Positions 23,175 through 54,988 of a stretch of 64,000 bases of DNA are shown in pieces. The translations under genes were made by a program, and so were the position numbers. The stretch comes from Bacteroides uniformis (GTDB taxonomy: Bacteria > Bacteroidota > Bacteroidia > Bacteroidales > Bacteroidaceae), in NCBI RefSeq assembly GCF_025147485.1, contig NZ_CP102263.1:2679501-2743500 (forward strand), given 5' to 3'. The notes beneath the pieces were generated by a model. It saw nothing but the letters and a program-made list of their open reading frames with translations, had not been told where the DNA came from and made no database searches. Every line of letters starts with the position of its first letter. Within the stretch, counting starts at the first letter, position 1.

Positions 23175-23274
23175 AAGTATTCGTCCGACATATGTAACCT
23201 TATCGTCCGACGGCTGTTGAATTATCGTCCGACAGCTGTCGGACGATAATTCAACAGCCGTCGGACGAATACTT
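23175..23274. repeat. 22-bp-period array with a 66-bp perfect palindrome
   Basis: The core CGTCCGAC occurs at 23182, 23204 and 23226, exactly 22 bp apart. Its complement GTCGGACG occurs at 23238 and 23260, again 22 bp apart. The stretch 23203-23268 is a perfect palindrome with 33-bp arms and no loop. An outer 15-bp inverted repeat (23175-23189 with 23260-23274) competes with it. The array lies between the divergent SRP RNA and beta-glucan regulator transcripts. The rest of the 23015-23390 gap shows nothing else I recognise. Confidence 0.85.
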
Positions 23275-23390
23275 CTTAGTATACCGGAATCTAAAGTATA
23301 GTTATGCAAAAGATTGCCATTTGAGAAGAAAATAATAATCGGGGACGAAAAAACAGATAGGCTATTGTGTGCTACCTTGAAAATAAGCAT

Positions 23391-23398
23391 TATTTTTG
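23391..23398 (+). promoter_or_regulatory. Promoter of the sensor-regulator gene
   Basis: TATTTTTG on the plus strand, 29 bases before the ATG at 23427. Confidence 0.5.
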
Positions 23399-23426
23399 TG
23401 CAACTAACTATATAGTCATTATACGC

Positions 23427-26318
23427 ATGAACAAACACATATTGTCATTCTACCTTTTTTTCTGCCTTTTTCTTTTTCCCCCTTTGGTCGAAGCAATTGC
23501 CGGCTGGAATAGCTTTATCGTCAATTTTGATAAAAGTGTTTATGGTAAGGGGACCCAGACTTGGCAGATAGCACCCTATGATGACAAGTGGGTATATTTC
23601 GCCAACAAGAACGGTATGGTGCAATTTGATGGCAATGTCTGGAATGTGTTTCCATTGAACAATGCTTCCGATGTGCGTTCCGTTCTGGCTTCTGCCACCC
23701 AAAAAAGAATTTATGTGGGGGGCATCAATGAATTCGGCTATTATGAACCGGATACGGACGGTTCTTTGGCCTATCATTGCATGTCCGATACTTTGGAGAG
23801 TTCCGTTCGTTTTCTTGGAAATGTGTGGGGCATCCATGAGACAGACAATATCTTGTATTTCCAAGGGGACGGGTGCGTGGTGAAGTACCTGAACGGCAAA
23901 TATACCGCCATTGAAATGAATGCCAAGATAGACTGTTCCAATATGGTCAATGGTATTCTTTACATCGGTACGGACAGAGGCGTATGGCTTTTGGTTGGAA
24001 ACACTTTTTTCCCTCTTCAGGGTGCCGATGCGTTGGCTTCCAAGCGTATTCGTGGCATTATACCTTATAAGAAAGGTGTTCTGGTGGTGACTGCATACAA
24101 CGGACTTTACTATTGTGACGGGCGTACGATGGAACCGTTTGTCACCGGTGCCGAAGAGTTTATGCGTGAGAATGAAGTCTTTTGCGTAGCCAAAAAGGAT
24201 GATAAGATTGCCTTGGGAACCATTCATAAAGGATTGGTACTGGTGGATTGCAGCACCATGCAACTGAAATATTTCAATGAGAACAACGGCTTGCGTAACA
24301 ATACGGTGCTTTCTGTCTCCTTCGATACGACCGGAAACCTCTGGGCCGGTCTGGATAGCGGCATTGACTACGTCTGTCTGAGTTCTCCTTTTACGAATCT
24401 CTATTCCTATCCTTATTCTTACGGCACGGGATATACGGCGGCGGTAGAAGGCGGCTATCTTTATTTAGGCACCAATCGGGGGCTGTATTACACTTCTTAT
24501 CCGGTACAGATGAACGGCGATTTGCCGGATATCCGTCCGATGCCCCAATCCAGCGGACAGGTCTGGAACCTTTGCCGTATAGGTGATGAACTCTTCTGTC
24601 TGCACGACCGTGGTATTTTCCTTATCAATGGTACTTCCGTAAAACGTGTGACGGACATTACCGGCGTCTGGTGTTGCCAACTTGTGGCAGGACGTACGGA
24701 CCTTATGTATGTCGGGGTATATAACGGTATTTATTTGGTTGGGAAAAAGAATGGAGAATGGCAGGTGGTTGGCAAGATTGAGGGTATGAACGATTCTTGC
24801 CGTCTTTTTGAGCAGGAAAGCGATAAGGTGATTTGGGTGTACAATACAGACCACGTTACCCGTGTGGATTTGGATAATGATTTGACAAAAGCTGTCCGTA
24901 TAAAGGAATATAGCGCGAAGGATGGTTTTCCGGTAGGACGTGATATGTATATAGCGAAGATAGAAGACCGGGTGTATTTTGCCACTCCCCGGGGAATCTA
25001 TAAGCATAATCCTCATAAAGATGTCATGGAGCCTTGTCCGGATATGAACAACCTTTTGAATGGCACCGCGGCCTATTCGCGTATCTTGGAGTATCACGAT
25101 AAGTTGATTAGTTTGAGCCCTCACGAAATCTGTATTGCCAATCTGGGTACCTATAAGCGGGGGGCGAATACAAGCATTAATCCCATCCAGCAATCGCTGA
25201 TTGAACTGGTACCCGGTTTTGAAACGATTATTCCTCTTTCAGATTCGCTGATGGTGGTTCCTAATGAAGGAGGTTTCGCTTTATTCAGCATCCCGGCCGT
25301 AAGAGAGCGTCAGGATCGTAGCCACTCCTTATATATAAGGAACATGTATCTGTCTTATCCCAAGGATTCATTGGTATATACCGCAAACTTTTTAGGAGAG
25401 AAGCCGGTTCCGGTGATAGCTTATTCCATGAATTCCGTTCGTTTTGACTATGCCCTTTCTTTTTTTTCGGTAGGGGATGATATCCGTTTTCAATATCGTT
25501 TGAATAAGGGAGGCTGGTCCGATTTTACAACGGTACGCACCAAGGAGTATAGTAATCTGTCGGAAGGTGAATATACGTTTGAAGTTAAAGCGGTCTTTCC
25601 TGACGGTACGACATCATCGGATACAATCGCCTTCCGTATACTTCCACCGTGGTATCGTAGTGCTGCTGCATACGTTTGTTATATCATCTTGGCTTTGCTT
25701 GCCTTATGGTATGTCTATCGTTGGGATGATGTCCGTGTGAAACGGAAGAAACAGCAGGCGGTAATCGAGAAAGATAAAGAGTTGCACGATATGGAAAGGG
25801 AGTACGAAGAGGAGAAAGCCCGTCAGGAAAAGCAGATTATGCAGCTGGAGAAAGAAAAATTGGAATACGATTTGCAACATAAGAGTCAGGAAATGGCCAA
25901 TCTGATGATAAACTTTGTCCGTAAGAATGAAATGCTGACTGAAATCAAGTCAGAGATACTTAAAGTATCCGCCTTGCTGAAGGGTGAGGGGGCTCGGGAA
26001 GGAAAACAGCAACTCATACTTATTAATAATAAAATAGACGGTAATATACAGAGTGATGAGGTTTTGAAGCGTATTGAAGACCAGTTCGATTTGATACATA
26101 ACAATTTTATGAAACGTCTTCATGCCAAGCATCCTGAACTTTCCCACAACGAACGCATGATGTGCGCTTATCTAAAGATGAATCTTTCCACGAAAGAAAT
26201 AGCACCTCTGCTGAACATTTCGGTTCGTGGAGTTGAAACAATCCGTTATCGTCTTCGTAAGAAGTTCGCTTTAGAGAGAGAGGATAGTTTGACGGATTAT
26301 TTAAGCAATAAACTGTAG
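23427..26318 (+). CDS. Membrane-spanning propeller sensor with LuxR-type HTH output
   Basis: A 963-residue regulator that probably senses beta-1,3-glucan oligosaccharides in the periplasm and activates the adjacent locus. Order: signal peptide (1-20), repeated propeller units (about 25-630), a Y_Y_Y-type domain (about 660-735), one transmembrane helix (about 743-764), a cytoplasmic coiled coil (about 770-830) and a C-terminal LuxR-like HTH (about 905-950, LSTKEIAPLLNISVRGVETI). It resembles a hybrid two-component sensor outside the cell but has no histidine kinase or receiver domain inside, so signalling is one-step. The start is ATG 23427 (MNKHILSFYL); the upstream extension has no signal peptide and precedes the transcript start. 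SusC follows after a terminator. Confidence 0.82.
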   Translation: MNKHILSFYLFFCLFLFPPLVEAIAGWNSFIVNFDKSVYGKGTQTWQIAPYDDKWVYFANKNGMVQFDGNVWNVFPLNNASDVRSVLASATQKRIYVGGINEFGYYEPDTDGSLAYHCMSDTLESSVRFLGNVWGIHETDNILYFQGDGCVVKYLNGKYTAIEMNAKIDCSNMVNGILYIGTDRGVWLLVGNTFFPLQGADALASKRIRGIIPYKKGVLVVTAYNGLYYCDGRTMEPFVTGAEEFMRENEVFCVAKKDDKIALGTIHKGLVLVDCSTMQLKYFNENNGLRNNTVLSVSFDTTGNLWAGLDSGIDYVCLSSPFTNLYSYPYSYGTGYTAAVEGGYLYLGTNRGLYYTSYPVQMNGDLPDIRPMPQSSGQVWNLCRIGDELFCLHDRGIFLINGTSVKRVTDITGVWCCQLVAGRTDLMYVGVYNGIYLVGKKNGEWQVVGKIEGMNDSCRLFEQESDKVIWVYNTDHVTRVDLDNDLTKAVRIKEYSAKDGFPVGRDMYIAKIEDRVYFATPRGIYKHNPHKDVMEPCPDMNNLLNGTAAYSRILEYHDKLISLSPHEICIANLGTYKRGANTSINPIQQSLIELVPGFETIIPLSDSLMVVPNEGGFALFSIPAVRERQDRSHSLYIRNMYLSYPKDSLVYTANFLGEKPVPVIAYSMNSVRFDYALSFFSVGDDIRFQYRLNKGGWSDFTTVRTKEYSNLSEGEYTFEVKAVFPDGTTSSDTIAFRILPPWYRSAAAYVCYIILALLALWYVYRWDDVRVKRKKQQAVIEKDKELHDMEREYEEEKARQEKQIMQLEKEKLEYDLQHKSQEMANLMINFVRKNEMLTEIKSEILKVSALLKGEGAREGKQQLILINNKIDGNIQSDEVLKRIEDQFDLIHNNFMKRLHAKHPELSHNERMMCAYLKMNLSTKEIAPLLNISVRGVETIRYRLRKKFALEREDSLTDYLSNKL

Positions 26319-26358
26319 CCTTTAGATATTAACTTCCTTTAAAAGAAGGAAGAGTATG

Positions 26359-26388
26359 AAAGGGAGGAATGTTAAATTTCTCCCTTTT
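26359..26388 (+). terminator. Terminator of the sensor-regulator gene
   Basis: AAAGGGAG at the left and CTCCCTTTT at the right enclose an imperfect stem ending in a T run, about 40 bases after the stop. Confidence 0.65.
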
Positions 26389-26463
26389 GTGTTATATAAC
26401 ATGTTGTGACGTAATACTTAAAAGTATATATTAATTATTGATTATTAGTAAGTTATTTGCTGA

Positions 26464-26506
26464 TGACGTATTGATAACGTATTTGAATTTCAGATTTGAC
26501 GTATTT
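26464..26506. promoter_or_regulatory. Candidate operator repeats before susC
   Basis: TGACGTATT at 26464, TAACGTATT at 26475 and TGACGTATT at 26497 are spaced 11 and 22 bp apart, and a related TGACGTAAT lies at 26407. They sit 41-83 bp upstream of the susC -7 element and are candidate binding sites for the adjacent HTH regulator. Confidence 0.5.
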
Positions 26507-26546
26507 AAGAATGATTGTTTTTTATTTGTTTTATTGCATTTTACTC

Positions 26547-26554
26547 TATGTTTG
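26547..26554 (+). promoter_or_regulatory. susC promoter -7 element
   Basis: TATGTTTG on the plus strand followed by CACTG. It predicts a leader of about 50 nt to the ATG at 26610. Confidence 0.55.
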
Positions 26555-26609
26555 CACTGTTCGATTGAGAACAAAACCGAGAAACGTTAATCTTAATTTA
26601 GTAAAACTT

Positions 26610-29600
26610 ATGAAAAAGTTATTATCAGTTTTATTTCTGTTAAGCTTTACCTTGGCTTCTGTATATGCCCAAAATATACAGGTAAAAGGTACAGTGGTAA
26701 GCGGTTCGGATAATGAACCGTTGCCTGGAGTAAATGTGGTAGTTAAAGGAACTACCAATGGTGGAATTACTGATTTGGACGGTAATTTTACATTGTCGGT
26801 TCCTGCCGACGCAACACTTTCTATTACCTATATTGGTTTTAAGTCGCAAGAAGTAGCGGTAAATGGAAAAAATTCCTTGAAAATAGTTCTTCAGGAAGAT
26901 TCAGAAACGCTGGACGAAGTAGTAGTGGTGGGGTATGGTGTTCAGAAAAAAAGTGTGGTAACAGCATCTATTGCCAAAGTTAGTAGTGAGGATTTGGAAA
27001 ACAAATCTCCGGTGCGTATGGATAATGCATTGAAAGGTTTGGCTGCAGGTGTGGATGTAACTTCAGCTTCTGGTCAGCCGGGTGATTCTCCTCGTGTACG
27101 TGTACGTGGTATTGGTACTATCAACAATAGTGATCCGCTCTACATTGTAGACGGTATGCCTATTGGGGGTGGTCTTGATTTTGTAAATCCTAATGATATC
27201 GAGTCTATCGAAGTGTTGAAAGATGCTGCTTCTGGTGCTATCTATGGTGCGCGTGCTGCTAATGGCGTTATTCTAGTAACTACCAAAAAAGGTAAGATGG
27301 GTAAGGCACAAATTAATTACAATTTTTCTTATGGCTGGCAGAGTGCATGGAAGAGACGTGATGTGACTAGTGCGACAGACTATGCTATCCTTCAGAATGA
27401 AGCCAATGTGAATGGTGGTCAGGCTCCAATTTATGCAGATCCTTATAATTTGATTGATGCTAATGGAAATTCTATCAAAGGATTTGGCACTGATTGGCAA
27501 GATCTTGTTTTCTATGACAATGCTCCGGTAGTGAATCATGATGTGACAGTTAGTGGTGCATCGGAAAAAGTAAATTATTATTTGTCTTTGGGGTATTATT
27601 CACAAGATGGTATTGTTGGTGGTAATCACGGACATTCTAATTATGACCGTTTGACTATTCGTTCCAATACTCAATATAATCTAATTGATGCATCTAAAGA
27701 ACGCGGTTTCCTTAATAAATTGGATTTAGGTGTAAATTTGGCTTATATGCGTACGCATTCAACAGGTGTTGGTACTAACTCTGAATTCGGTTCAATTTTG
27801 GGATCGGCTCTTTATCTGTCTCCTATTTTGACCCCTACATTGACTGGTGATGCAGCTGAAAAGATGATTGAAACTTATAAAGATTTTGATTTGCCTCGTG
27901 ATGCAAATGGTGATCCTTATACAGTACCTGGCTATGGAGGAGCTTATCAGGAAATGAATAATCCGCTGGCTATGATGACATTGACTCCTACAAAGAATTG
28001 GTCGCATAAGTTTGTTCCAAAGTTTTCTATTGATCTTCAATTGTGGGATAATTTGAAGTATCACTTCAATTATAGTGCTGATATGGGATTTTGGGGTAAT
28101 GAAGGGGCTACTAAGAGCAAGTATTATCTCTCAGCTAATAATAAGGCAACACATACTAATGCATCTTCATTCAAGGCACAGAATGTGACATGGCAGATTG
28201 AAAATACATTGACTTATGATAAAACTATCGGCAAACATACATTTGGTGTTGTATTAGGACAGTCTGCCCTTAAATATAAGGGAGATCAACTTGGTGGTAA
28301 CCGTTGGAATCTGGTGAATCCTAATAAACCTTCTATTGATTATGCTACAGGGAATGTTGAATATACAAAGGATGCAGATGGTAATATTACTGGTGCTACA
28401 GTTCAGTATGGCGTTTATGGAGGTCCTTATACAGAACATAGAATGTCATCTATGTTTGCTCGTTTGAGTTATAACTATAATGAACGCTATATGATTCAGG
28501 CTACAATCCGTCGTGATGGTTCAAGTCGTTTTGGTATTAATAATAAATATGGTACATTCCCTTCAGTATCTGTGGGATGGAATGTGACAAATGAGGAATT
28601 TATGGCTGATACGCGAGAATGGTTGTCTAACCTAAAGGTTCGTGCCAGTTGGGGTAAGAATGGTAATGATAACATAGCCGAATTTGGTTATACTTCATTG
28701 ACAGCCATGGGTAATAATGTCCTTTTGGGCAAAGATGCCATCAAATGGAATGGTTCTAAAGCACAACGTTTGGCAAATCCTGATTTGAAATGGGAAGAGA
28801 GTGAACAAACTGACTTGGGTATTGATTTGGGATTCTTTAATAATGCTTTAACATTCAGTGCCGACTATTACATAAAGAAAACCAATGGCATGATTATTAC
28901 GATGCCTATCCCGAGTTATGTAGGTGAAACTAAGCCTCTTGGTAACGTAGGTGATATGGAAAATAGTGGTTTTGAGTTTGAACTTGGCTATAAATGGAAT
29001 ATTGCTGATGCTAAATTTGCAGTAAAGGGAAATGCTACTTATCTTAAAAATGAATTGAAGAATTTGGGAAATGATACTGGCTATATGGATTTAGATGGTA
29101 TTCAAGGATTCTCTGGCGGCGGTACACGCGGCTCTAACGGACAACCTTTCCCCTATTTCTATGGTTACAAGACTGACGGTGTTTTCCAGAATATGGATGA
29201 AGTTCGTGCTTATGTCAATAAAGATGGTAAAATGATTATGCCGGATGCGGTTCCTGGTGATACACGTTTTGTGGATGTAAATGGTGATGGCAGCATCTCG
29301 GCAGATGACCGTACTAACATTGGTAATGGTACTCCGGATTGGACTTATGGTTTGAATCTCAATGCTGATTGGAAAGGCTTTGATTTTAATATTTTCTTCC
29401 AAGGTGTGGCTGGTGCTGATGTGTTTGATGGCACTTATCGTACAGATGTTGCTTCTGGTAACTATCCTTCTTGGATGTTGGGACGTTGGACTGGTGAAGG
29501 TACTTCTAATAAGTATCCTCGTCTGGCTGTCGGTAATGCAACGAACTGGATGGTATCTGATCTTTATGTTTGTGATGGTTCATATCTTCGTCTTAAGAAT

Positions 29601-29813
29601 ATTACTTTGGGATATACATTGCCTAAGACTCTTACTCGCAAACTTACTATTGAACGTCTGCGTGTGTATGTGCAAGCTGAAAATCTTGTGACTTGGACCA
29701 AATATTGGGGATTTGATCCTGAAATTTCTTCAGGTGCAACTTCTCTTGGTGTTGACCGTGGTATTTATCCGCAGGCTCGCACATATACAGTAGGTGTAAA
29801 TGTTTCTTTCTAA
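26610..29813 (+). CDS. SusC-like TonB-dependent outer-membrane transporter
   Basis: A 1,067-residue outer-membrane porin that imports glucan oligosaccharides using TonB energy. Order: signal peptide (1-21, ending VYAQ), carboxypeptidase-regulatory-like domain (about 22-100), TonB-box region (LDEVVVVGYG near 105-114), plug domain (about 120-225) and beta-barrel to the C-terminal VNVSF. The start is ATG 26610 (MKKLLSVLFL); a longer frame to 26496 carries no signal. The SusD partner starts 18 bases after its stop. The neighbouring GH16/GH158/GH3 enzymes indicate beta-1,3-glucan as substrate. Confidence 0.93.
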   Translation: MKKLLSVLFLLSFTLASVYAQNIQVKGTVVSGSDNEPLPGVNVVVKGTTNGGITDLDGNFTLSVPADATLSITYIGFKSQEVAVNGKNSLKIVLQEDSETLDEVVVVGYGVQKKSVVTASIAKVSSEDLENKSPVRMDNALKGLAAGVDVTSASGQPGDSPRVRVRGIGTINNSDPLYIVDGMPIGGGLDFVNPNDIESIEVLKDAASGAIYGARAANGVILVTTKKGKMGKAQINYNFSYGWQSAWKRRDVTSATDYAILQNEANVNGGQAPIYADPYNLIDANGNSIKGFGTDWQDLVFYDNAPVVNHDVTVSGASEKVNYYLSLGYYSQDGIVGGNHGHSNYDRLTIRSNTQYNLIDASKERGFLNKLDLGVNLAYMRTHSTGVGTNSEFGSILGSALYLSPILTPTLTGDAAEKMIETYKDFDLPRDANGDPYTVPGYGGAYQEMNNPLAMMTLTPTKNWSHKFVPKFSIDLQLWDNLKYHFNYSADMGFWGNEGATKSKYYLSANNKATHTNASSFKAQNVTWQIENTLTYDKTIGKHTFGVVLGQSALKYKGDQLGGNRWNLVNPNKPSIDYATGNVEYTKDADGNITGATVQYGVYGGPYTEHRMSSMFARLSYNYNERYMIQATIRRDGSSRFGINNKYGTFPSVSVGWNVTNEEFMADTREWLSNLKVRASWGKNGNDNIAEFGYTSLTAMGNNVLLGKDAIKWNGSKAQRLANPDLKWEESEQTDLGIDLGFFNNALTFSADYYIKKTNGMIITMPIPSYVGETKPLGNVGDMENSGFEFELGYKWNIADAKFAVKGNATYLKNELKNLGNDTGYMDLDGIQGFSGGGTRGSNGQPFPYFYGYKTDGVFQNMDEVRAYVNKDGKMIMPDAVPGDTRFVDVNGDGSISADDRTNIGNGTPDWTYGLNLNADWKGFDFNIFFQGVAGADVFDGTYRTDVASGNYPSWMLGRWTGEGTSNKYPRLAVGNATNWMVSDLYVCDGSYLRLKNITLGYTLPKTLTRKLTIERLRVYVQAENLVTWTKYWGFDPEISSGATSLGVDRGIYPQARTYTVGVNVSF

Positions 29814-29831
29814 TCTAAAAATAAGAACTAT

Positions 29832-31421: not shown

Positions 31422-31452
31422 TTTACCATAACTCCATTAATAAATAATTGAT

Positions 31453-32826: not shown

Positions 32827-32873
32827 TGGCTAGTATTAGATAGAATATTGGTCTGCTAAAAGCAGTGAATAAT

Positions 32874-32934
32874 AAAAAGGGGGAAGGATGTGGGTTATCT
32901 TGGCAATTGCTGGAGTTTCATCCTTTCCCTTTTT
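32874..32934 (+). terminator. Long hairpin between the binding-protein and GH16 genes
   Basis: AAAAAGGGGGAAGGATG at 32874-32890 pairs with CATCCTTTCCCTTTTT at 32919-32934 with one mismatch, followed by CTCTAC. It may act as a partial terminator separating transport genes from enzyme genes. Confidence 0.55.
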
Positions 32935-40666: not shown

Positions 40667-40747
40667 CGATTTACTAAATCTTCCTCCAAGATTTAGTAAA
40701 TCGTTGCCGGAGATTTAGTAAAATGTCCGGGAGATTTTAGTAAACGA
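40667..40747. repeat. 21-22-bp-period array with an inverted first copy
   Basis: The core AGATTTAGTAAA begins at 40689 and 40711, and as AGATTTTAGTAAA at 40732 (spacing 22 and 21). An inverted copy at 40670-40681 pairs with the first direct copy: CGATTTACTAAATCTT (40667-40682) and its perfect complement (40688-40703) around CCTCC. The surrounding 40512-41063 region holds no gene, and no other structure that I recognise. Confidence 0.8.
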
Positions 40748-41202: not shown

Positions 41203-41547
41203 ATGGGACTTCAGTATGTAGTGGCAAAGAGAATCTTTGGTTTTGACAAGGACAAAAATGTAAAGTATGTAGCTAAATCCGTAGGAGCGGGTGAATTGGA
41301 TTTTGATAAGTTATGTGCCAAAGTGAGCCGTATTCTTGGTATTCACAGAAAGACGGTGGACTTAGTGGCTGCAGGACTGGTGGACATCATGTCGGAAGAA
41401 ATAGACGATGGAAAGACTGTTCGTTTAGGTGATTTCGGATTGTTCCGCCCTTCTTTTGTAGGGAAGAGTGCTGATACGGAGGCTGGCGTTTCGGCCAGTA
41501 ACATTGTCCGTAAACGTATTCTGTTTTTTCCGGGGGAAAGCTTTTAG
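41203..41547 (+). CDS. HU-HIG-type DNA-binding protein, frameshifted near its end
   Basis: A 114-residue reading of a histone-like HU-family protein of the Bacteroides HU-HIG type: MGLQYVVAKRIFGFDKDKN, then the HU dimer core with KVSRILGIHRKTVDLVAAGLVDIM. The frame ends at TAG 41545-41547 right after FFPGESF. Skipping one T in the preceding TTTT run leads directly into SQMLGNMSVTKMVV and an acidic Gly/Ser/Asn-rich tail, ending at a stop at 41687-41689. The intact product would be about 161 residues, and such tails are normal for this family. The change could be a mutation, a +1 frameshift site or a sequencing error. The protein probably binds DNA non-specifically. Confidence 0.75.
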   Translation: MGLQYVVAKRIFGFDKDKNVKYVAKSVGAGELDFDKLCAKVSRILGIHRKTVDLVAAGLVDIMSEEIDDGKTVRLGDFGLFRPSFVGKSADTEAGVSASNIVRKRILFFPGESF

Positions 41548-46028: not shown

Positions 46029-46052
46029 TATACAGTTGTTTGGTTTCGATCA

Positions 46053-46060
46053 CAAAAGTA
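46053..46060 (-). promoter_or_regulatory. Promoter of the AraC-family gene
   Basis: TACTTTTG on the minus strand followed by TGATCG, 25 bases before the ATG. Confidence 0.5.
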
Positions 46061-46152
46061 TATGTTTCCAATAATATAACTTCTATTGTGGGCAAGAAAT
46101 ATATTGCCTTTTTTATTCATTTCAAATCTGCCCGAATTTCGCAAATTCTTCA

Positions 46153-46160
46153 TACCTTTG
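46153..46160 (+). promoter_or_regulatory. Promoter of the PurF-like gene
   Basis: TACCTTTG on the plus strand followed by CATCC. It predicts a start near 46167, 33 bases before the ATG at 46200, and rules out the longer reading frame. Confidence 0.6.
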
Positions 46161-46199
46161 CATCCGTTAATTTTAGAAACCAATAACAAAACAGAACTT

Positions 46200-47612: not shown

Positions 47613-47641
47613 TTGACATTTTGTCCTTAAGAAATAAAAAA

Positions 47642-47679
47642 GAGGCGTGAATTGCTTGGCAGTTCACGCCCCTTTTTTT
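47642..47679 (+). terminator. Terminator of the PurF-like gene
   Basis: GGCGTGAA pairs with TTCACGCC around an 11-base loop and is followed by CCTTTTTTT. Confidence 0.85.
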
Positions 47680-47700
47680 ATCTTTACAGCACAAAATAGT

Positions 47701-47802
47701 GGTTAATGATTAGTGATTAATGATTAATGCCATTCGGATAATGCTTTTCGCCAATTACTAATCACTGACCATTAATCACTAACCATTAATCACTAATCAT
47801 TA
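47701..47802. repeat. Opposed heptamer arrays in the pepT leader
   Basis: Heptamers of TAATCAY type run in inverted orientation at 47701-47729 and in direct orientation at 47754-47802. A 19-bp perfect complement (47704-47722 with 47784-47802) lets them close a hairpin ending 6 bases before the pepT ATG. Confidence 0.75.
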
Positions 47803-47808
47803 TTCATC

Positions 47809-49032
47809 ATGACTTTAGTAGAACGTTTTTTAAAGTACGTAAGCTTCGATACTCAGTCCAGTGAAGAGACTGAGATTACTCCGAGTACTCCGGGGCAAAT
47901 GGTGTTTGCCCGGTATCTGAAAGAAGAATTGGAAACTTTGGGTCTGGAAGAAATCACGTTGGACGAAAATGGTTATCTGTTCGCCACTCTTCCTGCCAAT
48001 ACAGACAAGCCGTTGCCCGTCATCGGCTTTATTGCCCACATGGATACAAGCCCCGATATGAGTGGCAAGAATGTTTCTCCGCGTATCGTGCAGAATTATG
48101 ACGGTAAGGACATTGTTCTTTGCGCCGAAGAGAATGTGGTTCTTTCTCCTGCCCAGTTCCCCGAACTGCTCGACCATCAAGGGGAAGATTTGATTGTGAC
48201 CGACGGCAAGACCTTGCTTGGTGCCGATGATAAAGCCGGTATTGCCGAAATTGTATCGGCGGTGGTATATCTGAAGGAGCACCCCGAAATCAAGCACGGT
48301 AAAATCCGTATCGGCTTTAATCCGGATGAGGAAATCGGTCTGGGCGCCCATAAGTTCAATGTAGCGCAGTTCGGTTGCGAATGGGCCTATACCATGGATG
48401 GCGGAGAAGTGGGTGAACTTGAATTCGAGAACTTCAATGCGGCCTCTGCCAAGATAAGCTTCAAGGGACGGAATGTGCATCCGGGCTATGCCAAGAATAA
48501 GATGATTAACTCTATCCGCGTTGCCAACCGTTTCATGTCCATGCTTCCGGCTGACGAGGCTCCGGAGCATACCGAAGGTTACGAAGGTTTCTATCATCTG
48601 ATAGGTATTACCGGCGAGGTGGAGCAGACAACAGTCTCTTACATTATCCGTGACCACGACCGCACCCGCTTCGAAGAGCGCAAGAAGGAGATGGAACGTC
48701 TTGTGGCAAAAATCAATGAAGAATACGGTCCGGGTACCGCTACTCTGGAACTTCGCGACCAATACTATAATATGCGCGAGCAGATTGAACCGGTGATGCA
48801 TATCATCGACACCGCTTTTGCCGCCATGAAGGCGGTAGGTGTAGAGCCTCGTGTAAAAGCCATTCGCGGAGGTACGGACGGCGCCCAGCTCTCTTTCAAG
48901 GGCCTGCCTTGTCCCAATATCTTTGCCGGTGGCTTGAACTTCCACGGCCGCTATGAGTTCGTGCCTATCCAGAACATGGAGAAAGCCATGAACGTCATCG
49001 TCAAGATTGCCGAGCTCGTAGCAAGCAAATAG
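47809..49032 (+). CDS. pepT: Peptidase T (tripeptide aminopeptidase)
   Basis: A 407-residue M20B dizinc aminopeptidase that removes the N-terminal residue from tripeptides in the cytoplasm. Metal-site blocks: HMDTSPD (about 76-82), LLGADDKAG (about 136-144) and NPDEEIG (about 171-177). GGTDGAQLS is near 352-360. Full length. gcvT follows after 31 bases. The leader is made of heptamer repeats. Confidence 0.93.
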
Positions 49033-49036
49033 ATAA

Positions 49037-49053
49037 TTCATAACTCATAACTC
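49037..49053. repeat. Heptamer microsatellite before gcvT
   Basis: TTCA then TAACTCA TAACTCT in register, the same heptamer as upstream of ttcA, 10 bases before the gcvT ATG. Confidence 0.6.
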
Positions 49054-49063
49054 TAATAGTTCC

Positions 49064-50152
49064 ATGAAAACCACTCCGTTTACCGAAAAACACATCTCGC
49101 TGGGTGCCAAGATGCACGAGTTTGCGGGATATAATATGCCTATCGAGTATTCCGGCATCATTGACGAGCATCTTACAGTATGTCAGGGTGTCGGTGTATT
49201 CGACGTCTCACACATGGGAGAATTTTGGGTGAAAGGTCCCCATGCTTTGGACTTTCTGCAGAAAGTGACTTCCAATAACATAGCTGCCCTCACACCGGGG
49301 AAAGTACAGTATACCTGCTTCCCAAATGAAAATGGAGGCATTGTGGACGACCTTCTGGTCTATCATTATGAGCCGGAGAAATACCTGCTTGTCGTGAATG
49401 CGTCGAACATTGAGAAAGACTGGAACTGGTGTGTGTCTCATAACACGGAAGGCGCTGAATTGGAAAATGCTTCCGAGCACATGGCACAGCTTGCTGTGCA
49501 AGGACCGAAGGCTATTCAGGCTTTGCAGAAGCTGACTTCCATTAATCTTTCCGACCTTCCTTACTATACTTTTACCCACGGTGAGTTTGCCGGAGAAAAG
49601 GATGTCATTATCTCCAATACCGGATATACCGGCGCGGGTGGTTTTGAACTTTACTTCTATCCGGAGGCTGCCATGAAGATTTGGGATGCCGTGTTCGAGG
49701 CAGGCGCGGAGTTCGGCATTAAGCCAGTTGGTCTGGGTGCGCGCGATACGCTTCGTCTGGAAATGGGATTCTGTTTGTATGGCAATGATTTGGATGACAC
49801 CACTTCGCCCATTGAAGCGGGTTTAGGATGGATTACCAAGTTTGTGGAGGGAAAGAACTTCACCAATCGCCCGATGCTGGAAAAACAGAAAGCGGAAGGC
49901 ACTACCCGTAAGTTGGTGGGATTTGAGATGATAGACCGCGGTATCCCCCGTCATGGTTACGAGCTGTATAGTACAGACGGTATTGCCATCGGTGTGGTTA
50001 CCTCCGGAACTATGTCGCCTACCCGTAAGATTGGTATCGGAATGGGGTATATCAGACCCGAATACAGCAAGGTCGGTACGGAAATCTGCATTGACATGCG
50101 GGGACGTAAGCTGAAAGCTGTGGTTGTGAAGCCGCCGTTCCGCAAACAGTAG
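49064..50152 (+). CDS. gcvT: Aminomethyltransferase GcvT (glycine cleavage T protein)
   Basis: A 362-residue folate enzyme that transfers the methylene unit from the aminomethyl group on H protein to tetrahydrofolate. The folate site appears in [11 protein letters not shown] (about 46-56) with Asp in the DVSH motif. [11 protein letters not shown] occurs near 226-236, and the family C-terminal domain is complete. The other gcv genes are not in the window. It is linked to pepT only by position. Confidence 0.93.
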
Positions 50153-50169
50153 TTTGAATAAATGACTGA

Positions 50170-50219
50170 GAATGAAGAATTTGGCTGCGCAATGATGCCG
50201 CATGACAAATTCTTCATTC
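50170..50219. terminator. Hairpin between gcvT and the M48-like gene
   Basis: GAATGAAGAATTTG pairs perfectly with CAAATTCTTCATTC across a 22-base loop, between convergent genes. The flanking T run is weak. Confidence 0.55.
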
Positions 50220-50242
50220 TTCATTCTTAGTTATTCCTTTCT

Positions 50243-51766
50243 CTATATTCTGCTTATCCTGTCCAGCATTTGGTTTGCCCAACCTATCTCTTTATTGGTC
50301 CATTCCTTTTCGGTTCCTTCTATGCCCTGGCCTTCGTAGGCCGAAAGCAAGGTGATATATTCTTTCAGTATATCAGCGGCTTGGGCTTGTTTGTTCATGC
50401 GCATCAATAATAGTATTTTTTGTTTATATATGTCCAGATTGGGGCTTGTTCCTGCCATCTCCTGGGCTTTATCAAGCATGGCGAGGCAGCGGTTGTTCAC
50501 TTCTTCCGTATTAGACAGTGCCATTTCCGCTTTTACCAGGATGATGTAGTCATTGTCCGTGGCTAGTCTGTTGTCAATGTTCTTGCGTATCAGCCGGGCA
50601 GTTTCCTTATAGCGCTTGTTGGCGTAGTTCATACTTGCGTTGAAAGAAACGACATCGCTGGTGGTCCGTAGGTAGGGGCGGGCACTCAGGCTATGGGATT
50701 CACCGGCCTTTTCTATACGCTTTTGCAGGTTGCCGATGCTGCCGTAGCGAGGAATGTCCTTGTTGCGTTGGTGCAGGTTGTAATACCCTATAATTTTACC
50801 GAGGGCCGATGCGATTCCGTCGGGATTATAGCCCTTGAATGCCAGAAGTTGGCGCGCAAGGCGGTCTGAAGAGATTTCCTGGGAAGTTTTGTATTTCATC
50901 CCCAACCGGTCCGTTGCCGGAATGCTCAAAAGGGAAGCGATGGCTCCGATATCTGCCACCAGACTGACGGCATAAGCATCTTCATTATCGTCCCAGTAGG
51001 CCACATCGAGGGCTGCGCTGGCGGTAGTGGCAAAGACATCTGCCCAAAAAGCTGCACGCTTGGCACGCCGCTCGGCACGATAAATGTTGTTTACCTGATG
51101 GTCGAGGACGAAATGTCCCAGCTCACATGCGATGACGGCGGCCAGTTCGTCTTCGGAATCAAGAGTGCAGAGGAGGCCTGTACTGATAACCATGGAGCCG
51201 TTGGGAAGCATGAAGGCATCTGGTTCGGACGACTGGATGATACGTATGTTCAGGCTTTCTCCACGATTGCTGTCAATGGTGGTGGCATTCAGTTTGGAGA
51301 ATATTCCTTGTACGTACGAGGTTATGTAGTCGTCCTGATAGGCTATCTCGTTCAGTTTATCGAGATAGTCCAGGCATTCTTCGTCGATTTCCTGGCGCAG
51401 TTTGTGCTTGTAACCGCGGTCGTTGAAATATTCGTAAAGATGATTCTTCAGGTATATTTGCTGCCAGAATTCCCAGTCCGTTTCCGGAGCGGATATGGCA
51501 ATGATACCCATCTCATCCGAAGGAATGGTTTCTTGTATGCCATTCACTTCGACGGCATAGTAAATGTTATCGCTGTTTTCACCGGGATTGTTCATTTTGA
51601 CAACCCGGCGGATAATGACCGGGGTACCGGCGGGAGATTGCTGGTACTCTTTTGTCAATTCTCCTTTGATGGCGATGTTTCCGCTTAAGTCCTTGTGCTT
51701 GGGTTTGGCAAACCCTGCCGTTGTGACAAGGATTGTTAGGATGAATAGGGTGGCGAGTCGTTTCAT
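50243..51766 (-). CDS. M48-like secreted protein with a degenerate zinc site and TPR tail
   Basis: A 507-residue exported protein (signal peptide about 1-19). The M48 peptidase-like core is at about residues 120-330 and TPR-like helices follow at about 355-495. The zinc-binding HExxH is CELGH (C214, E215, H218), and the downstream ExxD/EAD motif reads SSDRLA, so two of three zinc ligands are missing. It is probably a pseudoprotease with a chaperone or scaffold role like the non-proteolytic part of BepA. The start is ATG 51766 (MKRLATLFIL); the promoter at 51797-51804 excludes the longer frame. Confidence 0.78.
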   Translation of the reverse strand: MKRLATLFILTILVTTAGFAKPKHKDLSGNIAIKGELTKEYQQSPAGTPVIIRRVVKMNNPGENSDNIYYAVEVNGIQETIPSDEMGIIAISAPETDWEFWQQIYLKNHLYEYFNDRGYKHKLRQEIDEECLDYLDKLNEIAYQDDYITSYVQGIFSKLNATTIDSNRGESLNIRIIQSSEPDAFMLPNGSMVISTGLLCTLDSEDELAAVIACELGHFVLDHQVNNIYRAERRAKRAAFWADVFATTASAALDVAYWDDNEDAYAVSLVADIGAIASLLSIPATDRLGMKYKTSQEISSDRLARQLLAFKGYNPDGIASALGKIIGYYNLHQRNKDIPRYGSIGNLQKRIEKAGESHSLSARPYLRTTSDVVSFNASMNYANKRYKETARLIRKNIDNRLATDNDYIILVKAEMALSNTEEVNNRCLAMLDKAQEMAGTSPNLDIYKQKILLLMRMNKQAQAADILKEYITLLSAYEGQGIEGTEKEWTNKEIGWANQMLDRISRI

Positions 51767-51796
51767 GATTATGGTATGTTTTCGGTTTCGATGATA

Positions 51797-51804
51797 CAAA
51801 AATA
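51797..51804 (-). promoter_or_regulatory. Promoter of the M48-like gene
   Basis: TATTTTTG on the minus strand followed by TATCATC, 31 bases before the ATG. Confidence 0.5.
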
Positions 51805-51888
51805 GGAAAGTGTTTTTCCCCTTTCTTGTTTTTTCCCCTATTCTGTGATAGGAGATTCCCTATTTATCGCTCAGCGGGAGGCGGAAAC

Positions 51889-51926
51889 AAAAAAGGGAAC
51901 CTTTCAGTGAAAGACTCCCTTTTTTC
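51889..51926 (-). terminator. Terminator of the L31 gene
   Basis: AAAAAAGGGA..CTTTC pairs with GAAAG..TCCCTTTTTT. On the minus strand it ends in a T run. Confidence 0.75.
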
Positions 51927-51943
51927 AGTTTGCTTGAAACTGA

Positions 51944-52195
51944 TTATTTCTTACGGTTACCGTAACGGCTCATGAACTTATCAACACGACCGGCGGTGTC
52001 AACCAGCTTGGACTTACCAGTGTAGAACGGGTGAGAAGTGCTGGAGATTTCCAGCTTTACCAGCGGATAAGTTTCACCTTCGAATTCGATAGTCTCTTTC
52101 GTGTTGCAAGTGGAACGAGACAAGAATACATCACCATTTGACATATCTTTAAATACTACCGGACGGTAATTTTCAGGATGAATACCTTTTTTCAT
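51944..52195 (-). CDS. rpmE2: Ribosomal protein L31 type B
   Basis: An 83-residue large-subunit protein. The sequence [20 protein letters not shown] is typical of type B (zinc-free) L31: the CxxC zinc motif of type A is absent, and a single Cys (RSTCNTK) remains. The start is ATG 52195; a longer frame to 52276 overlaps the promoter. It has its own promoter and terminator. Confidence 0.95.
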
Positions 52196-52272
52196 TTTGA
52201 TATTTTCTTTTAAAAATTTATATTCTGTTACTATTTTGGTAATAAATAGTGTAATGGTCTTCTTTTCAGAGC

Positions 52273-52280
52273 GCAAAGAT
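52273..52280 (-). promoter_or_regulatory. L31 promoter -7 element
   Basis: TATCTTTG on the minus strand followed by CGCTC, 78 bases before the L31 ATG. Confidence 0.6.
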
Positions 52281-52383
52281 AGTGCAAGTTGGAGACTCTA
52301 CAAAATAAATTCAGATTTATTTTTATTTAGTAGGTTTATCGCATTTTATTTCTGATTTTTGCAGGACTTAATCTTGTGAATTT

Positions 52384-53391
52384 ATGAGGAAACTACTTGT
52401 CTTATGCTCTTTCTGGCTGTGCGTGGCAACGCTGGGGGCACAAAATGCGGAACGGAAACTGTATAGTGTTGCGTTCTACAATCTTGAGAACTTATTTGAT
52501 ACGATTCATGATGCAGGTAAGAATGACTATGAGTTCCTGCCTAACGGCAGTTACCAGTGGACGGCAAAGAAGTATGAGTCCAAGCTGCAGAACCTTTCCA
52601 AAGTGTTGGGGTCCCTTTCGCGTGATTTAGTGCCGGAAGGTCCGGCATTCATCGGTGTGGCAGAGGCAGAGAACAGCCGGGTGCTGGAAGACCTCGTGAA
52701 GCAGCCGGCCATTTCCAATTATGAGTTCGTGCATTATGAAGGACCGGACAGACGGGGCATCGACTGTGCCTTGCTGTACGACCCGAAGCAATTCAGCGTT
52801 ACCCACTCAAAGTTGGTGCTTTCCACTCCTTTTGAGGGGGATACGGTGCACTTGACGCGTGGCTTCTTGATTGTGGACGGACAACTGGCGGGAGAGCGTG
52901 TCTGCGTGATAGTGAACCACTGGCCCTCCCGTGGGGCAAAGTCGCCGGTGCGTGTGCATGCAGCCAGGCAGGTAAAGGCCTTGAAGGACTCTCTGATGCG
53001 TAGCGACAAGAAGCTGAAGCTCATCGTGATGGGGGATATGAATGACGACCCGATGGACGAAAGCATGGAGGTGCTGGGAGCGCGCAAATATCCGAAGCAG
53101 GTGAAGAAAGGCGAATTCTACAATCCCTGGTGGGTGACGCTGGAAGACAAGGGAGTGGGGACATTGCTCTATCGGGGCAAGTGGAACTTGTTTGACCAGA
53201 TTGTCATTTCGAAACCGTTGCTGAAGGCTAAGAAAGGGTTGCGCTATGATCACAATGAAGTTTTCATCCGCGATTATCTGATTCAGCAGGATGGCAAATA
53301 CAAAGGTTCCCCCTTGCGTACGCATGGGGGCAGGACTTGGCTGAACGGTTACAGTGACCATTTGCCGACCATCATCTATCTGAAAAATTAG
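52384..53391 (+). CDS. Secreted endonuclease/exonuclease/phosphatase-family protein
   Basis: A 335-residue member of the EEP (DNase I-like) fold with a signal peptide (1-19, ending LGAQ). Motifs: NLENLFD (about 34-40), VAEAEN (about 95-100, metal-binding Glu), VNHWPSRG (about 178-185), MGDMNDDP (about 217-224) and SDHLP near the C-terminus. All catalytic positions are in place. The substrate could be extracellular nucleic acid or a phosphoester; this is not decided by sequence. Confidence 0.85.
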   Translation: MRKLLVLCSFWLCVATLGAQNAERKLYSVAFYNLENLFDTIHDAGKNDYEFLPNGSYQWTAKKYESKLQNLSKVLGSLSRDLVPEGPAFIGVAEAENSRVLEDLVKQPAISNYEFVHYEGPDRRGIDCALLYDPKQFSVTHSKLVLSTPFEGDTVHLTRGFLIVDGQLAGERVCVIVNHWPSRGAKSPVRVHAARQVKALKDSLMRSDKKLKLIVMGDMNDDPMDESMEVLGARKYPKQVKKGEFYNPWWVTLEDKGVGTLLYRGKWNLFDQIVISKPLLKAKKGLRYDHNEVFIRDYLIQQDGKYKGSPLRTHGGRTWLNGYSDHLPTIIYLKN

Positions 53392-53417
53392 TATTACATA
53401 ATAATGTGTAAACAGAT

Positions 53418-53449
53418 GCCGGAGAGCAAACATGTTCTCCGGCTTTTTT
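53418..53449 (+). terminator. Terminator of the EEP-family gene
   Basis: GCCGGAGA pairs with TCTCCGGC and is followed by six T. Confidence 0.88.
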
Positions 53450-53626
53450 GTTGATAGAAGTATAGATGGCAAAAGTATGGCTGGCAGAGATAAATGCAAA
53501 GAGTTTGTAATATAGAGATTACAATAATCTGTTAAATGAAGCCAATAGCTTTAAAATAGAATGGATTTGGTAGGATGAGCCGGATATTTTATTCCCGTCA
53601 AGTTCTTTACTTTAAAGGATAATGAT

Positions 53627-53634
53627 TACTTTTG
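53627..53634 (+). promoter_or_regulatory. fba promoter -7 element
   Basis: TACTTTTG on the plus strand followed by CGTAG, 39 bases before the ATG. Confidence 0.55.
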
Positions 53635-53673
53635 CGTAGAATTTTAATTCACTAACAATAAAATTTAAACAAA

Positions 53674-54684
53674 ATGGTTAATTACAAAGATTTAGGACTG
53701 GTAAACACAAGAGAGATGTTTGCTAAGGCTATCAAAGGTGGATATGCTATTCCGGCATTCAACTTCAACAATATGGAACAGATGCAGGCTATCATCAAGG
53801 CTGCAGTTGAAACAAAGTCTCCGGTTATTCTTCAGGTATCTAAGGGTGCCCGTCAGTATGCCAACGCTACGCTGTTGCGTTACATGGCTCAGGGTGCTGT
53901 TGAGTACGCTAAGGAATTGGGTTGCAAACATCCTGAAATTGTTCTTCACCTTGACCACGGAGATACATTCGAAACTTGCAAGAGCTGTATCGACTCCGGT
54001 TTCTCTTCAGTAATGATTGACGGTTCACACCTTCCGTACGAAGAAAACGTTGCACTGACTAAGAAGGTAGTTGACTATGCCCATCAGTTCGACGTAACTG
54101 TAGAAGGCGAACTCGGTGTATTGGCCGGTGTAGAAGATGAAGTTTCTGCAGAACACCATACATATACTAATCCTGAAGAAGTTATTGACTTCGCTACCCG
54201 TACAGGTTGCGATTCACTGGCTATCTCAATCGGTACTTCTCATGGTGCATACAAGTTCAAACCCGAACAATGCCACGTTGACCCTGCTACCGGTCGTCTG
54301 GTTCCTCCTCCTTTGGAATTTGCCGTTCTGGATGCTGTAATGGAGAAACTTCCGGGATTCCCCATCGTTCTTCACGGTTCTTCTTCAGTTCCTCAGGAAG
54401 AAGTTGATACTATCAACAAGTATGGTGGTAAGCTGGAAGCTGCTATCGGTATCCCCGAAGAGCAGTTGCGTAAGGCTGCCAAGTCTGCTGTTTGCAAAAT
54501 CAACATCGACTCTGACTCACGTCTGGCTATGACAGCTGCTATCCGCAAGACATTTGCTGAAAAACCGGCAGAATTCGACCCGCGTAAGTATCTGGGTCCG
54601 GCTCGTGACAATATGGAAAAACTGTACAAGCATAAAATCATCAACGTGCTTGGTTCAGAGAACAAATTGGCTCAACTGGACTAA
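53674..54684 (+). CDS. fba: Class II fructose-bisphosphate aldolase
   Basis: A 336-residue zinc aldolase of glycolysis and gluconeogenesis that splits fructose-1,6-bisphosphate. Motifs: PAFNFNNMEQ (about 26-35), zinc-binding LHLDHGDTF (about 90-98), the second metal segment VEGELG (about 137-142) and SIGTSHGAYKF (about 190-200). The codon pattern is regular, as for a highly expressed gene. A hairpin terminator follows. Confidence 0.94.
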   Translation: MVNYKDLGLVNTREMFAKAIKGGYAIPAFNFNNMEQMQAIIKAAVETKSPVILQVSKGARQYANATLLRYMAQGAVEYAKELGCKHPEIVLHLDHGDTFETCKSCIDSGFSSVMIDGSHLPYEENVALTKKVVDYAHQFDVTVEGELGVLAGVEDEVSAEHHTYTNPEEVIDFATRTGCDSLAISIGTSHGAYKFKPEQCHVDPATGRLVPPPLEFAVLDAVMEKLPGFPIVLHGSSSVPQEEVDTINKYGGKLEAAIGIPEEQLRKAAKSAVCKINIDSDSRLAMTAAIRKTFAEKPAEFDPRKYLGPARDNMEKLYKHKIINVLGSENKLAQLD

Positions 54685-54717
54685 TCGAAAGATAATCCGA
54701 ATATAGCGTCAGCCCTT

Positions 54718-54743
54718 GCAATATTGATGTTGCAAGGGCTGAC
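54718..54743 (+). terminator. Hairpin after fba
   Basis: GTCAGCCCTTGCAA pairs perfectly with TTGCAAGGGCTGAC; the downstream T run is short (TTGTTAT). Confidence 0.65.
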
Positions 54744-54818
54744 TTGTTATATATAGGCCGGTGTTGTGGGATGGTTAAGTTCGCCGGTTATTTCAGAAGC
54801 GGATGTTTCAACGTGTAC

Positions 54819-54988
54819 AACAGTCTGTTTCCTTTAACAAAACAGTCTGTTTCCCTTAACTGAACAGTTTGTTTCAATAAAGAGAACACTTCGTTCCAAT
54901 ATGCAAAAACACTTCGTTCCAATACGTAAGAACACTTTGTTTCTACATATCCGAACACTTTGTTTCTCTATACTGGAACAAAGTGTTC
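54819..54988. repeat. Seven-copy 22-23-bp-period array closed by an inverted copy
   Basis: A 13-bp core begins at 54819, 54841, 54863, 54885, 54908, 54931 and 54954, so spacing is 22 or 23 bp. It drifts from AACAGTCTGTTTC through AACAGTTTGTTTC and AACACTTCGTTCC to AACACTTTGTTTC; neighbours are most alike. An inverted copy at 54975-54987 pairs with the seventh copy to form a 14-bp hairpin with 8-base loop. The array lies between convergent fba and the amylase gene. Confidence 0.88.

What the first reader, a model, noticed from the sequence alone, without database searches (positions are those of the whole stretch)
23175..54988. Three unrelated intergenic arrays share one architecture: short core, 21-23 bp period, inverted closing copy
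Seen directly: arrays at 23175-23274, 40667-40747 and 54819-54988 have different cores (CGTCCGAC, AGATTTAGTAAA, AACACTTTGTTTC). Yet all repeat at two helical turns and all contain at least one inverted copy that forms a hairpin with its neighbour. Core sequence is conserved within an array and unrelated between arrays, so the architecture and not the sequence is shared. I know no named family like this. Possible explanations: a replication or repair slippage process that duplicates 22-bp units, phased protein-binding platforms, or substrates of an unknown element.
Basis: partly seen in the sequence, partly recalled or inferred. Interest (0 to 1): 0.8.

Follow-up and report, generated by a model that had tools for sequence, protein, structure and literature searches.

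The report
Bacteroides intergenic 22-bp phased repeat elements
The three odd repeat clusters are real and belong to several families of short DNA elements scattered through gut Bacteroides genomes, each built from its own short word repeated every two turns of the DNA helix, which looks like a row of seats for an unknown DNA-binding protein.

Summary
Confirmed and extended. Each array belongs to a dispersed multi-locus family, and the genome holds many families with one architecture. In 43.0 kb of sampled own non-coding DNA there are 28 arrays of >=3 copies (shuffles 0.8) and 12 of >=4 (0.025); none of the latter lay in ORFs. Exact 8-mer repeats peak at 21-23 bp (122 vs 2.7), also in other Bacteroides, not in E. 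coli; other Bacteroidales are patchy. The register is strict: family 2 has four cores at 22,22,22 bp at all 10 loci examined; a fourth family mostly alternates half-sites at about 10 and 12 bp. In orthologues of families 2 and 3 core letters change less than spacers, though family-3 cores not significantly less than flanks. Units are gained or lost whole and can invert in place. Array 3 is absent in two relatives; another family sits in the array-2 interval of one. Most likely these are MITE-like elements whose body is a phased array of protein-binding sites; the protein, target-site duplication and movement are not shown. Nearest named relative: P. gingivalis BrickBuilt. New variant of a known kind.

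The parts
23164..23288 (+). Array 1, family-1 element: five GTCCGAC/GTCGGAC cores (3 direct + 2 inverted) with inverted ends, by eye (TACTAGAAAGTATTCG .. CGAATACTTCTTAGTA)
   Evidence: orthologous element in B. muris L150 with 4+1 orientation
23203..23268 (.). 31-bp perfect hairpin inside array 1 (arms 23203-23233 and 23238-23268)
   Evidence: DNA z -11.5; RNA fold of the element z -13.2
40670..40744 (+). Array 2, family-2 element: four TTTA-S-TAAA cores at 40670, 40692, 40714, 40736 (exactly 22 bp apart)
   Evidence: orthologous array in G018
54819..54987 (+). Array 3, family-3 element body: eight AACANNNTGTT cores, spacing 22,22,22,23,23,23,23; the last has the reverse centre (AAG)
54988..55012 (+). 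Conserved terminal cap of family 3 (TGAACTAAC at 54996-55004)
   Evidence: 11 own loci; matches in 12 of 158 genomes of the genus at up to 1 mismatch, some probably chance: reversed control 2 hits
54764..55029 (.). Stretch missing from sister species G148, between two CCGGTG copies (54758-54763 and 55024-55029); the array is also absent in G144
55071..55128 (.). A further short array (CTTGCAGAT .. ATCTGCAAG) beside array 3, also present in G148 and, as a near-perfect palindrome, in G144

Best explanation
Each array is one copy of a short (about 75-200 bp) non-coding element belonging to a family dispersed through the genome. The element body is a family-specific core set in a strict 21-23-bp (two-turn) register, sometimes as half-sites every turn. 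It often ends in a cap motif. I infer that the cores are binding sites for a family-specific protein that assembles along one face of the DNA. That would explain why core letters, site number and phase are kept while core orientation and spacer sequence drift. The protein is most likely a transposase- or recombinase-like factor that spreads the element, so the element behaves like a MITE. After arrival the array changes by gain or loss of whole units and by inversion or rewriting of one hairpin arm from the other. Shown: dispersal, register, near-fixed number in families 1 and 2, presence/absence between species, unit indels, inversion in place, and low core divergence in families 2 and 3. Inferred: protein binding, and mobilisation by a trans-acting enzyme.
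For: Dispersed families in the own genome: 7, 3 and at least 11 loci, and in relatives. 21-23-bp peak: own 122 pairs vs 2.7 shuffled, other Bacteroides 55 vs 2.6, E. coli 3 vs 1.3; own ORFs have no peak at 22. Family 2: 4 cores at 22,22,22 in 10 of 10 loci examined, with free orientation. Family 4 (CTGCA/TGCAG): mostly alternating ~10/12-bp half-site spacing over 12 loci, several with an inverted-repeat end motif by eye. Family 3: 23-bp spacing on the cap side and 22-bp on the other, with one switch, in 16 of 19 loci. Core letters: family 2 0/64 changed vs flank 62/338 (p 1.4e-5); family 3 9/345 vs spacer 56/456 (p 3e-7). Gain/loss: array 3 absent in G144 and G148; the array-2 interval holds a different family in G144. 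Units of 22-23 bp gained or lost.
Against: No target-site duplication or clean empty site was found. The array-3 gap in G148 is better read as a deletion between CCGGTG repeats, because G144 keeps the left flank. No partner transposase was found (only Y1_Tnp, PF01797, was searched; absent from the own genome). Family-3 cores are not significantly slower than flanks (p 0.21), so homogenisation between units could mimic constraint. Family 1 shows no core constraint in five orthologue pairs (core 9/120, spacer 10/170, flank 25/941; 6 of the 9 in a pair with an inverted unit). Core positions were picked by the motif itself, which favours low core rates. A dyad core is not a general rule: 6 of 44 arrays at p<0.05, Fisher chi2 99.7 on 88 df. 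Repeat excess exists at other distances too (own 8-20 bp: 64 vs 9.3, 27 of them at 14 bp). Some family-1 elements are old and vertically inherited, so movement, if any, is slow. No vehicle was seen: arrays 1 and 3 have no plasmid match (32, 33; array 2 not searched).
Confidence: 0.45

Rival explanations
1. Neutral minisatellites: replication slippage and template switching at small hairpins duplicate and invert about 22-bp units; nothing binds them and nothing moves them.
For: Unit-sized indels in 4 of 8 orthologue comparisons, including a perfect 23-bp duplication with nearly identical flanks (L003/L222). Internal unit inverted in place (array 1 vs B. muris). Hairpin arms in family 1 match each other better than other elements' arms (10.75 vs 8.75 of 14, permutation p 5e-5, 16 elements). 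Spacers diverge faster than flanks in family 3 (56/456 vs 57/1380).
Against: Exactly four cores at exactly 22,22,22 bp in 10 of 10 family-2 loci examined, and five core positions, by eye, at all 7 own family-1 loci. The same core and cap recur at unlinked loci and in other species. Core letters are kept while spacers saturate (family 2, own vs G018: 0/32 vs 17/39). Slippage gives no reason for the same period in unrelated sequences, or for its concentration in Bacteroides.
Confidence: 0.25
2. Host-owned binding platforms (regulatory, nucleoid or chromosome-organising sites) that are not mobile.
For: Core constraint in family 2 and fixed site number; orthologous family-1 loci shared by several species; 6 of 19 family-1 loci lie between divergent genes, about what placement by chance gives.
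Against: Placement is not promoter-like: 0 of 12 family-3 and 1 of 8 family-2 loci between divergent genes; over 42 classified arrays of all kinds, 10 convergent and 6 divergent against about 5 and 12 expected (p 0.033 and 0.041). Array 3 is absent in two relatives, and the array-2 interval carries an unrelated family in G144.
Confidence: 0.18
3. RNA elements: transcribed hairpins acting as mRNA stabilisers, terminators or paralogous small RNAs.
For: Stable folds (RNA z -13.2, -5.8, -5.2); mild excess between convergent genes; Bacteroides does have multicopy sRNA families (PMC11697453, search listing and passages seen).
Against: No Rfam family at gathering threshold covers the arrays. Family-1 inner arms are fully paired in only 8 of 16 elements. 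Free core orientation in family 2 would break RNA structure (inference). The FopS query sequence quoted in PMC11697453 matches none of the cores by eye.
Confidence: 0.07
4. REP/BIME elements mobilised by a RAYT (Y1 tyrosine transposase).
For: Short extragenic palindromic repeats in clusters; Y1_Tnp matches in 41 of 60 genomes of the order.
Against: No Y1_Tnp match in the own genome, which holds all the families; no unpaired GTAG or CGTC tag next to a single long-stem hairpin (by inspection).
Confidence: 0.03

Closest known systems
BrickBuilt MITE-minisatellite of Porphyromonas gingivalis (PMC4596501; parts 1-3 of 9 and search passages read)
   Same: Same order (recalled); intergenic; 19 loci per genome; imperfect 23-bp tandem units; non-repeat end pieces; unit number differs between strains while loci are mostly shared
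   Different: Direct repeats without spacers or alternating cores; long leader and tail (up to 285 and 318 nt) with IS5-type 12-bp TIRs; one sequence family. Here there are many unrelated families, short caps, strict core register, free core orientation, and a near-fixed number in two families. The BrickBuilt unit is absent from the window at up to 3 mismatches
MITEs in general
   Same: Short, non-coding, intergenic, multi-copy; family 1 and several family-4 elements have inverted ends by eye
   Different: No target-site duplication and no matching IS shown; body made of phased sites
REP/BIME with RAYT (PMC3733652, part 1 of 8 and search passages read)
   Same: Extragenic palindromic clusters with opposite orientations
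   Different: No RAYT domain match in the own genome; no unpaired tag; about 22-bp register of short cores instead of 20-40-bp hairpins
Transposon ends with several ~22-bp transposase sites (Tn7/TnsB, Mu/MuA) and plant En/Spm subterminal TNPA motifs; plasmid iterons (all recalled, no call)
   Same: Multiple short sites at about two helical turns, in either orientation, near the end of an element
   Different: No coding element or replicon seen attached; membership not claimed

Membership tests
MITE | Short non-coding element in several dispersed copies | tested here: met
MITE | Terminal inverted repeats | tested here: inconclusive
   Seen by eye in family 1 and in several family-4 elements; family 3 has one conserved cap only
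MITE | Target-site duplication / clean empty site | tested here: inconclusive
   Array-3 locus: G148 gap between CCGGTG repeats looks like a deletion; G144 lacks the array but the right flank is too diverged for base-exact borders
MITE | Parent IS with the same ends | not tested
   No IS-end search was made
BrickBuilt | 23-nt unit AGAYCATARTATCCTCTCRTRTG | tested here: not met
   0 matches in the window with up to 3 mismatches
BrickBuilt | Tandem 22-23-bp units bounded by conserved end pieces on both sides | tested here: inconclusive
REP/RAYT | Y1_Tnp (RAYT) gene in the genome | tested here: not met
   PF01797: 0 matches in the own genome; 41 of 60 order genomes positive
REP/RAYT | 20-40-bp hairpin with an unpaired GTAG or CGTC tag | tested here: not met
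   Cores of families 1-3 have 3-6-bp arms around 1-3 central bases; by inspection
VNTR minisatellite | Unit number varies between strains | tested here: inconclusive
   Same unit number at 3 of 4 family-3 loci in same-species contigs, the fourth interrupted; whole-unit indels in 4 of 8 between-species comparisons; fixed number in family 2
CRISPR array | Longer near-identical repeats in one direction with unique spacers | tested here: not met
   8-14-bp cores in both orientations; cas genes not searched

The most novel reading that the evidence does not exclude
Bacteroides genomes host an undescribed, diversified class of non-autonomous elements. Each family has its own core and a set, helically phased array of sites in either orientation, serving a family-specific multimeric DNA-handling protein. 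Dozens of such protein/element pairs may coexist, so that the geometry is universal and the sequence is private, and one family can take over the locus of another.
Probability: 0.3. Interest if true: 0.85.

Novelty: new variant of a known kind. Interest (0 to 1): 0.63.

Why it matters
It turns a visual oddity into a measurable genome property: a sharp 21-23-bp repeat peak in Bacteroides intergenic DNA. It gives ready-made probes (array 2: four sites at exactly 22 bp) to fish out the proteins involved. If a single class of proteins explains all families, it would be a new mobile-element or chromosome-organisation system in a dominant gut genus. If not, it shows how hairpins and slippage build phased arrays. 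Either way such dispersed repeats could break draft assemblies and mislead annotation (inference).

Tried and rejected
RAYT/REP: rejected, no Y1_Tnp match in the own genome. Dyad-symmetric core as a general rule: rejected by my own test (6 of 44 arrays at p<0.05, Fisher chi2 99.7 on 88 df); it holds by eye only for some families. tRNA-linked integration: 3 of 22 family loci have a tRNA within about 1.5 kb, no rule. Plasmid or phage carriage: arrays 1 and 3 gave no plasmid match (32, 33; array 2 not searched there). Array 3 gave 4 phage-collection hits, unannotated faecal contigs that align to own-genome loci at 97-99.9%, so I read them as bacterial DNA (34, 48). Two 24-kb window pieces against the phage collection covered none of the arrays with a same-species contig. 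IMG/VR: 1 match for the family-3 cap (L228, not examined further) and 0 for the family-1 turn. FopS/RbpB small RNAs: the query sequence in PMC11697453 does not resemble the cores by eye. Rfam: only SRP RNA and a tRNA reach threshold in the window. Strict hairpin constraint in family 1: only 8 of 16 inner arms are perfectly paired. Same locus hosting different families (gapA downstream, array-2 interval; 29, 102): striking, but not clearly above the base rate of about one >=3-copy array per 1.5 kb of non-coding DNA (37). Literature: in the listings of searches I saw nothing describing such arrays in Bacteroides; bioRxiv and most subscription journals are not in that library.
Full report
What was checked. 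The window is 2679501-2743500 of a 4.63-Mb single-contig genome. Array 1 has five GTCCGAC/GTCGGAC cores, array 2 four TTTA[C/G]TAAA cores exactly 22 bp apart, and array 3 eight AACANNNTGTT cores at 22 and then 23 bp. Folding as single-stranded DNA gives a 31-bp hairpin for array 1, 17 bp for array 2 and 14 bp for the right part of array 3; no shuffle of 200 folded as well.

Is it more than chance? I wrote a detector: 9-mer seed, at most one mismatch, either strand, same-orientation spacing 17-27 bp, opposite 9-30 bp. I ran it on the window and 20 evenly spaced 20-kb stretches of the own genome (464 kb). All 12 arrays of at least four copies were outside ORFs of 90 or more codons. In the 187 non-coding segments (43.0 kb) there were 28 arrays of at least three copies and 12 of at least four. 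Forty dinucleotide shuffles gave a mean of 0.8 (maximum 3) and one in total. Without the window the counts are 23 and 9 in 400 kb, which scales, by inference, to about 100 arrays of at least four copies per genome. A count that does not presuppose the period agrees: exact 8-mer direct repeats in non-coding DNA number 75 at distance 22, 27 at 21 and 20 at 23 (shuffles 1.1, 0.2, 1.4), with echoes at 42 (10) and 44 (38). There is a separate peak at 14 (27). ORFs show no peak at 22.

Taxonomic reach. The 21-23-bp excess is 122 pairs vs 2.7 in the own sample, 90 vs 2.4 without the window, and 55 vs 2.6 in ten other Bacteroides species. It is 3 vs 1.3 in 250 kb of E. coli K-12. Segments with at least one such pair, against 18-20 and 24-26 bp: own 24 of 187 (5, 2), other Bacteroides 14 of 176 (2, 2), E. 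coli 2 of 103 (2, 1). In two samples of other Bacteroidales the pair counts are 15 vs 1.6 and 69 vs 1.8 and the segments 6 of 82 (7, 2) and 8 of 149 (5, 3); 62 of the 69 pairs come from two stretches, one of them with 7-bp repeats, and these samples have larger excesses at 8-20 bp (135 vs 5.2, 129 vs 9.7). Own and other Bacteroides also have an excess at 8-20 bp (64 vs 9.3, 40 vs 11.0). With the detector, arrays of >=3 and >=4 copies were 16 and 6 in other Bacteroides (shuffles 2.3 and 0), 10 and 1 in the first sample of other Bacteroidales (2.2 and 0.05), and none in 100 kb of E. coli (0.1 and 0). I call the trait Bacteroides-centred, not exclusive.

Dispersed families. Array 1 has six further own loci, array 2 two and array 3 at least ten. 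A pattern for the family-1 turn matched 33 stretches in GTDB genomes: 24 labelled Bacteroides, two Phocaeicola, one Bacteroidales; the other six show a single turn without an array. The family-3 cap matches in 12 of 158 genomes of the genus at up to one mismatch, against 2 hits in 2 genomes for the reversed control pattern, so some single hits may be chance. Three further own stretches were compared with two sister species. Of their seven arrays, three (L072:13449, L090:8103, L090:18604) gave many further loci, the two in L086 a few, and two in L072 none.

Strict geometry. Family 2: 10 of 10 loci examined (three own, six in G148, one in G018; two of these are orthologues of own loci; three further G018 hits were not examined) have exactly four cores at 22, 22, 22 bp, with seven different orientation patterns. 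Family 1: all seven own loci read by eye as five core positions, 3+2 or 4+1, counting cores with one or two changed letters. Of 21 other complete elements of this arrangement, 19 read as five; L158 has three and L138 four. Two truncated elements and five differently arranged hits (L141, L149, L154, L155, L156) were set aside. Family 3: 5-9 cores in 19 loci, orthologues included; in 16 the spacing is 23 bp on the cap side and 22 bp on the other with one switch. Exceptions are L003, its orthologue L222, and L211; L022 and L023 lack the cap. Family 4 (own L090:8103-8243, its G148 orthologue and ten relatives): CTGCA and TGCAG half-sites mostly alternating at about 10 and 12 bp, several with an inverted-repeat end motif by eye. 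These regularities are hard to get from slippage alone.

How they change. Between related species whole units come and go: 23 bp at L006/L208, 22 bp at L007/L210, a perfect 23-bp duplication at L003/L222 with one flank difference in the displayed alignment, and several units at L007/L224. Four other comparisons show none, two of them cut by contig ends and one losing homology at the end of the array. In same-species contigs of 97-99.9% identity unit number is the same at 3 of 4 loci, and the fourth is interrupted in mid-array. Array 1 has an orthologue in B. muris with an internal unit inverted and the total of five kept. L013 and its B. fluxus orthologue are mirror images whose inner arms differ between species but match within each. 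In 16 family-1 elements of 3+2 type, chosen from 27 with a located turn, the inner arms pair better within than between elements (10.75 vs 8.75 of 14, permutation p 5e-5), but only 8 of 16 are perfect, so arm correction looks episodic.

Constraint. In two family-2 orthologue pairs core letters changed at 0 of 64 sites against 17 of 78 in spacers and 62 of 338 in flanks, while the centre base flipped at 4 of 8. In the nearer pair (L018/L218) spacers too were unchanged (0 of 39). In seven family-3 pairs (L003/L222 left out) core letters changed at 9 of 345, centres 13 of 128, spacers 56 of 456, flanks 57 of 1380. Five family-1 pairs gave core 9 of 120, spacer 10 of 170, flank 25 of 941, so no sign of constraint, with an inverted unit inflating one pair. 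Fisher tests: family 2 core vs flank p 1.4e-5; family 3 core vs spacer p 3e-7 but core vs flank p 0.21. Core positions were picked by motif in either sequence, and conversion between units could imitate constraint, so binding is inferred, not shown.

Gain and loss. Array 3 is missing from G148 and from G144. In G144 the left flank aligns up to window 54808, about 10 bp before the array; to the right BLAST resumes only at 55155 and the part between is recognisable by eye. So the array is a gain in the own lineage or a loss. The G148 gap lies between two CCGGTG copies and also removes flank present in G144, so it looks like a deletion. At the array-2 locus G018 keeps four phased cores, G144 has an array of another family (CCCAAG..TTGGG) in the same interval, and no family-2 core was found in the 6.0-kb G148 stretch. 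Downstream of gapA some other species carry unrelated arrays and others none, by eye. Given the base rate, such coincidences are not by themselves proof of hotspots.

Placement. Over 42 classified arrays, convergent intervals are somewhat over-represented and divergent ones under-represented (10 and 6 against about 5 and 12; p 0.033 and 0.041). Family 3 has none of 12 between divergent genes, family 2 one of 8, family 1 six of 19. This argues against ordinary operators for family 3, less so for family 1.

Reading. I favour MITE-like dispersed elements whose body is a phased array of binding sites for a family-specific protein (0.45). Neutral minisatellites (0.25), host platforms (0.18), RNA elements (0.07) and RAYT-type REPs (0.03) are the rivals. 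The nearest named thing is BrickBuilt of P. gingivalis (PMC4596501): 23-bp units, end pieces and intergenic sites, but direct units without spacers, long leader and tail, and one family; its unit is absent from the window. Comparisons with Tn7, Mu, En/Spm and iterons are recalled, not tested.

Noticed in passing
window 17066-17093, 17834-17869, 47759-47807, 49033-49053: Heptamer arrays (AATCATT, ATAACTC and similar) end 1-10 bp before ATG-started ORFs at 17100, 17871, 47809 and 49064; such repeats probably give the 14-bp peak.
   Followed up: no
window 55071-55128; L025; L190: A second short array (CTTGCAGAT..ATCTGCAAG) lies beside array 3 and beside another family-3 locus (L025); in G144 (L190) it is a near-perfect palindrome.
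   Followed up: partly
L132 (MT837093) vs L004: In a same-species contig the family-3 array next to tRNA-Leu/tRNA-Gly is cut in mid-array and joined to other DNA.
   Followed up: partly
L086 vs G144 C82:9049-23761: 14.7 kb at 99% identity although other long matches to G144 are mostly about 83-97%: a likely recent transfer that carried two arrays.
   Followed up: no
L072:13449-13531 vs L252 and L255: Own and G144 share an array where G148, closer to the own genome over the window, has a member of the same core family with other spacers.
   Followed up: partly
window 41203-41547: A small ORF that looks like an HU-type DNA-binding protein by eye (no family search) starts about 456 bp from array 2.
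   Followed up: no
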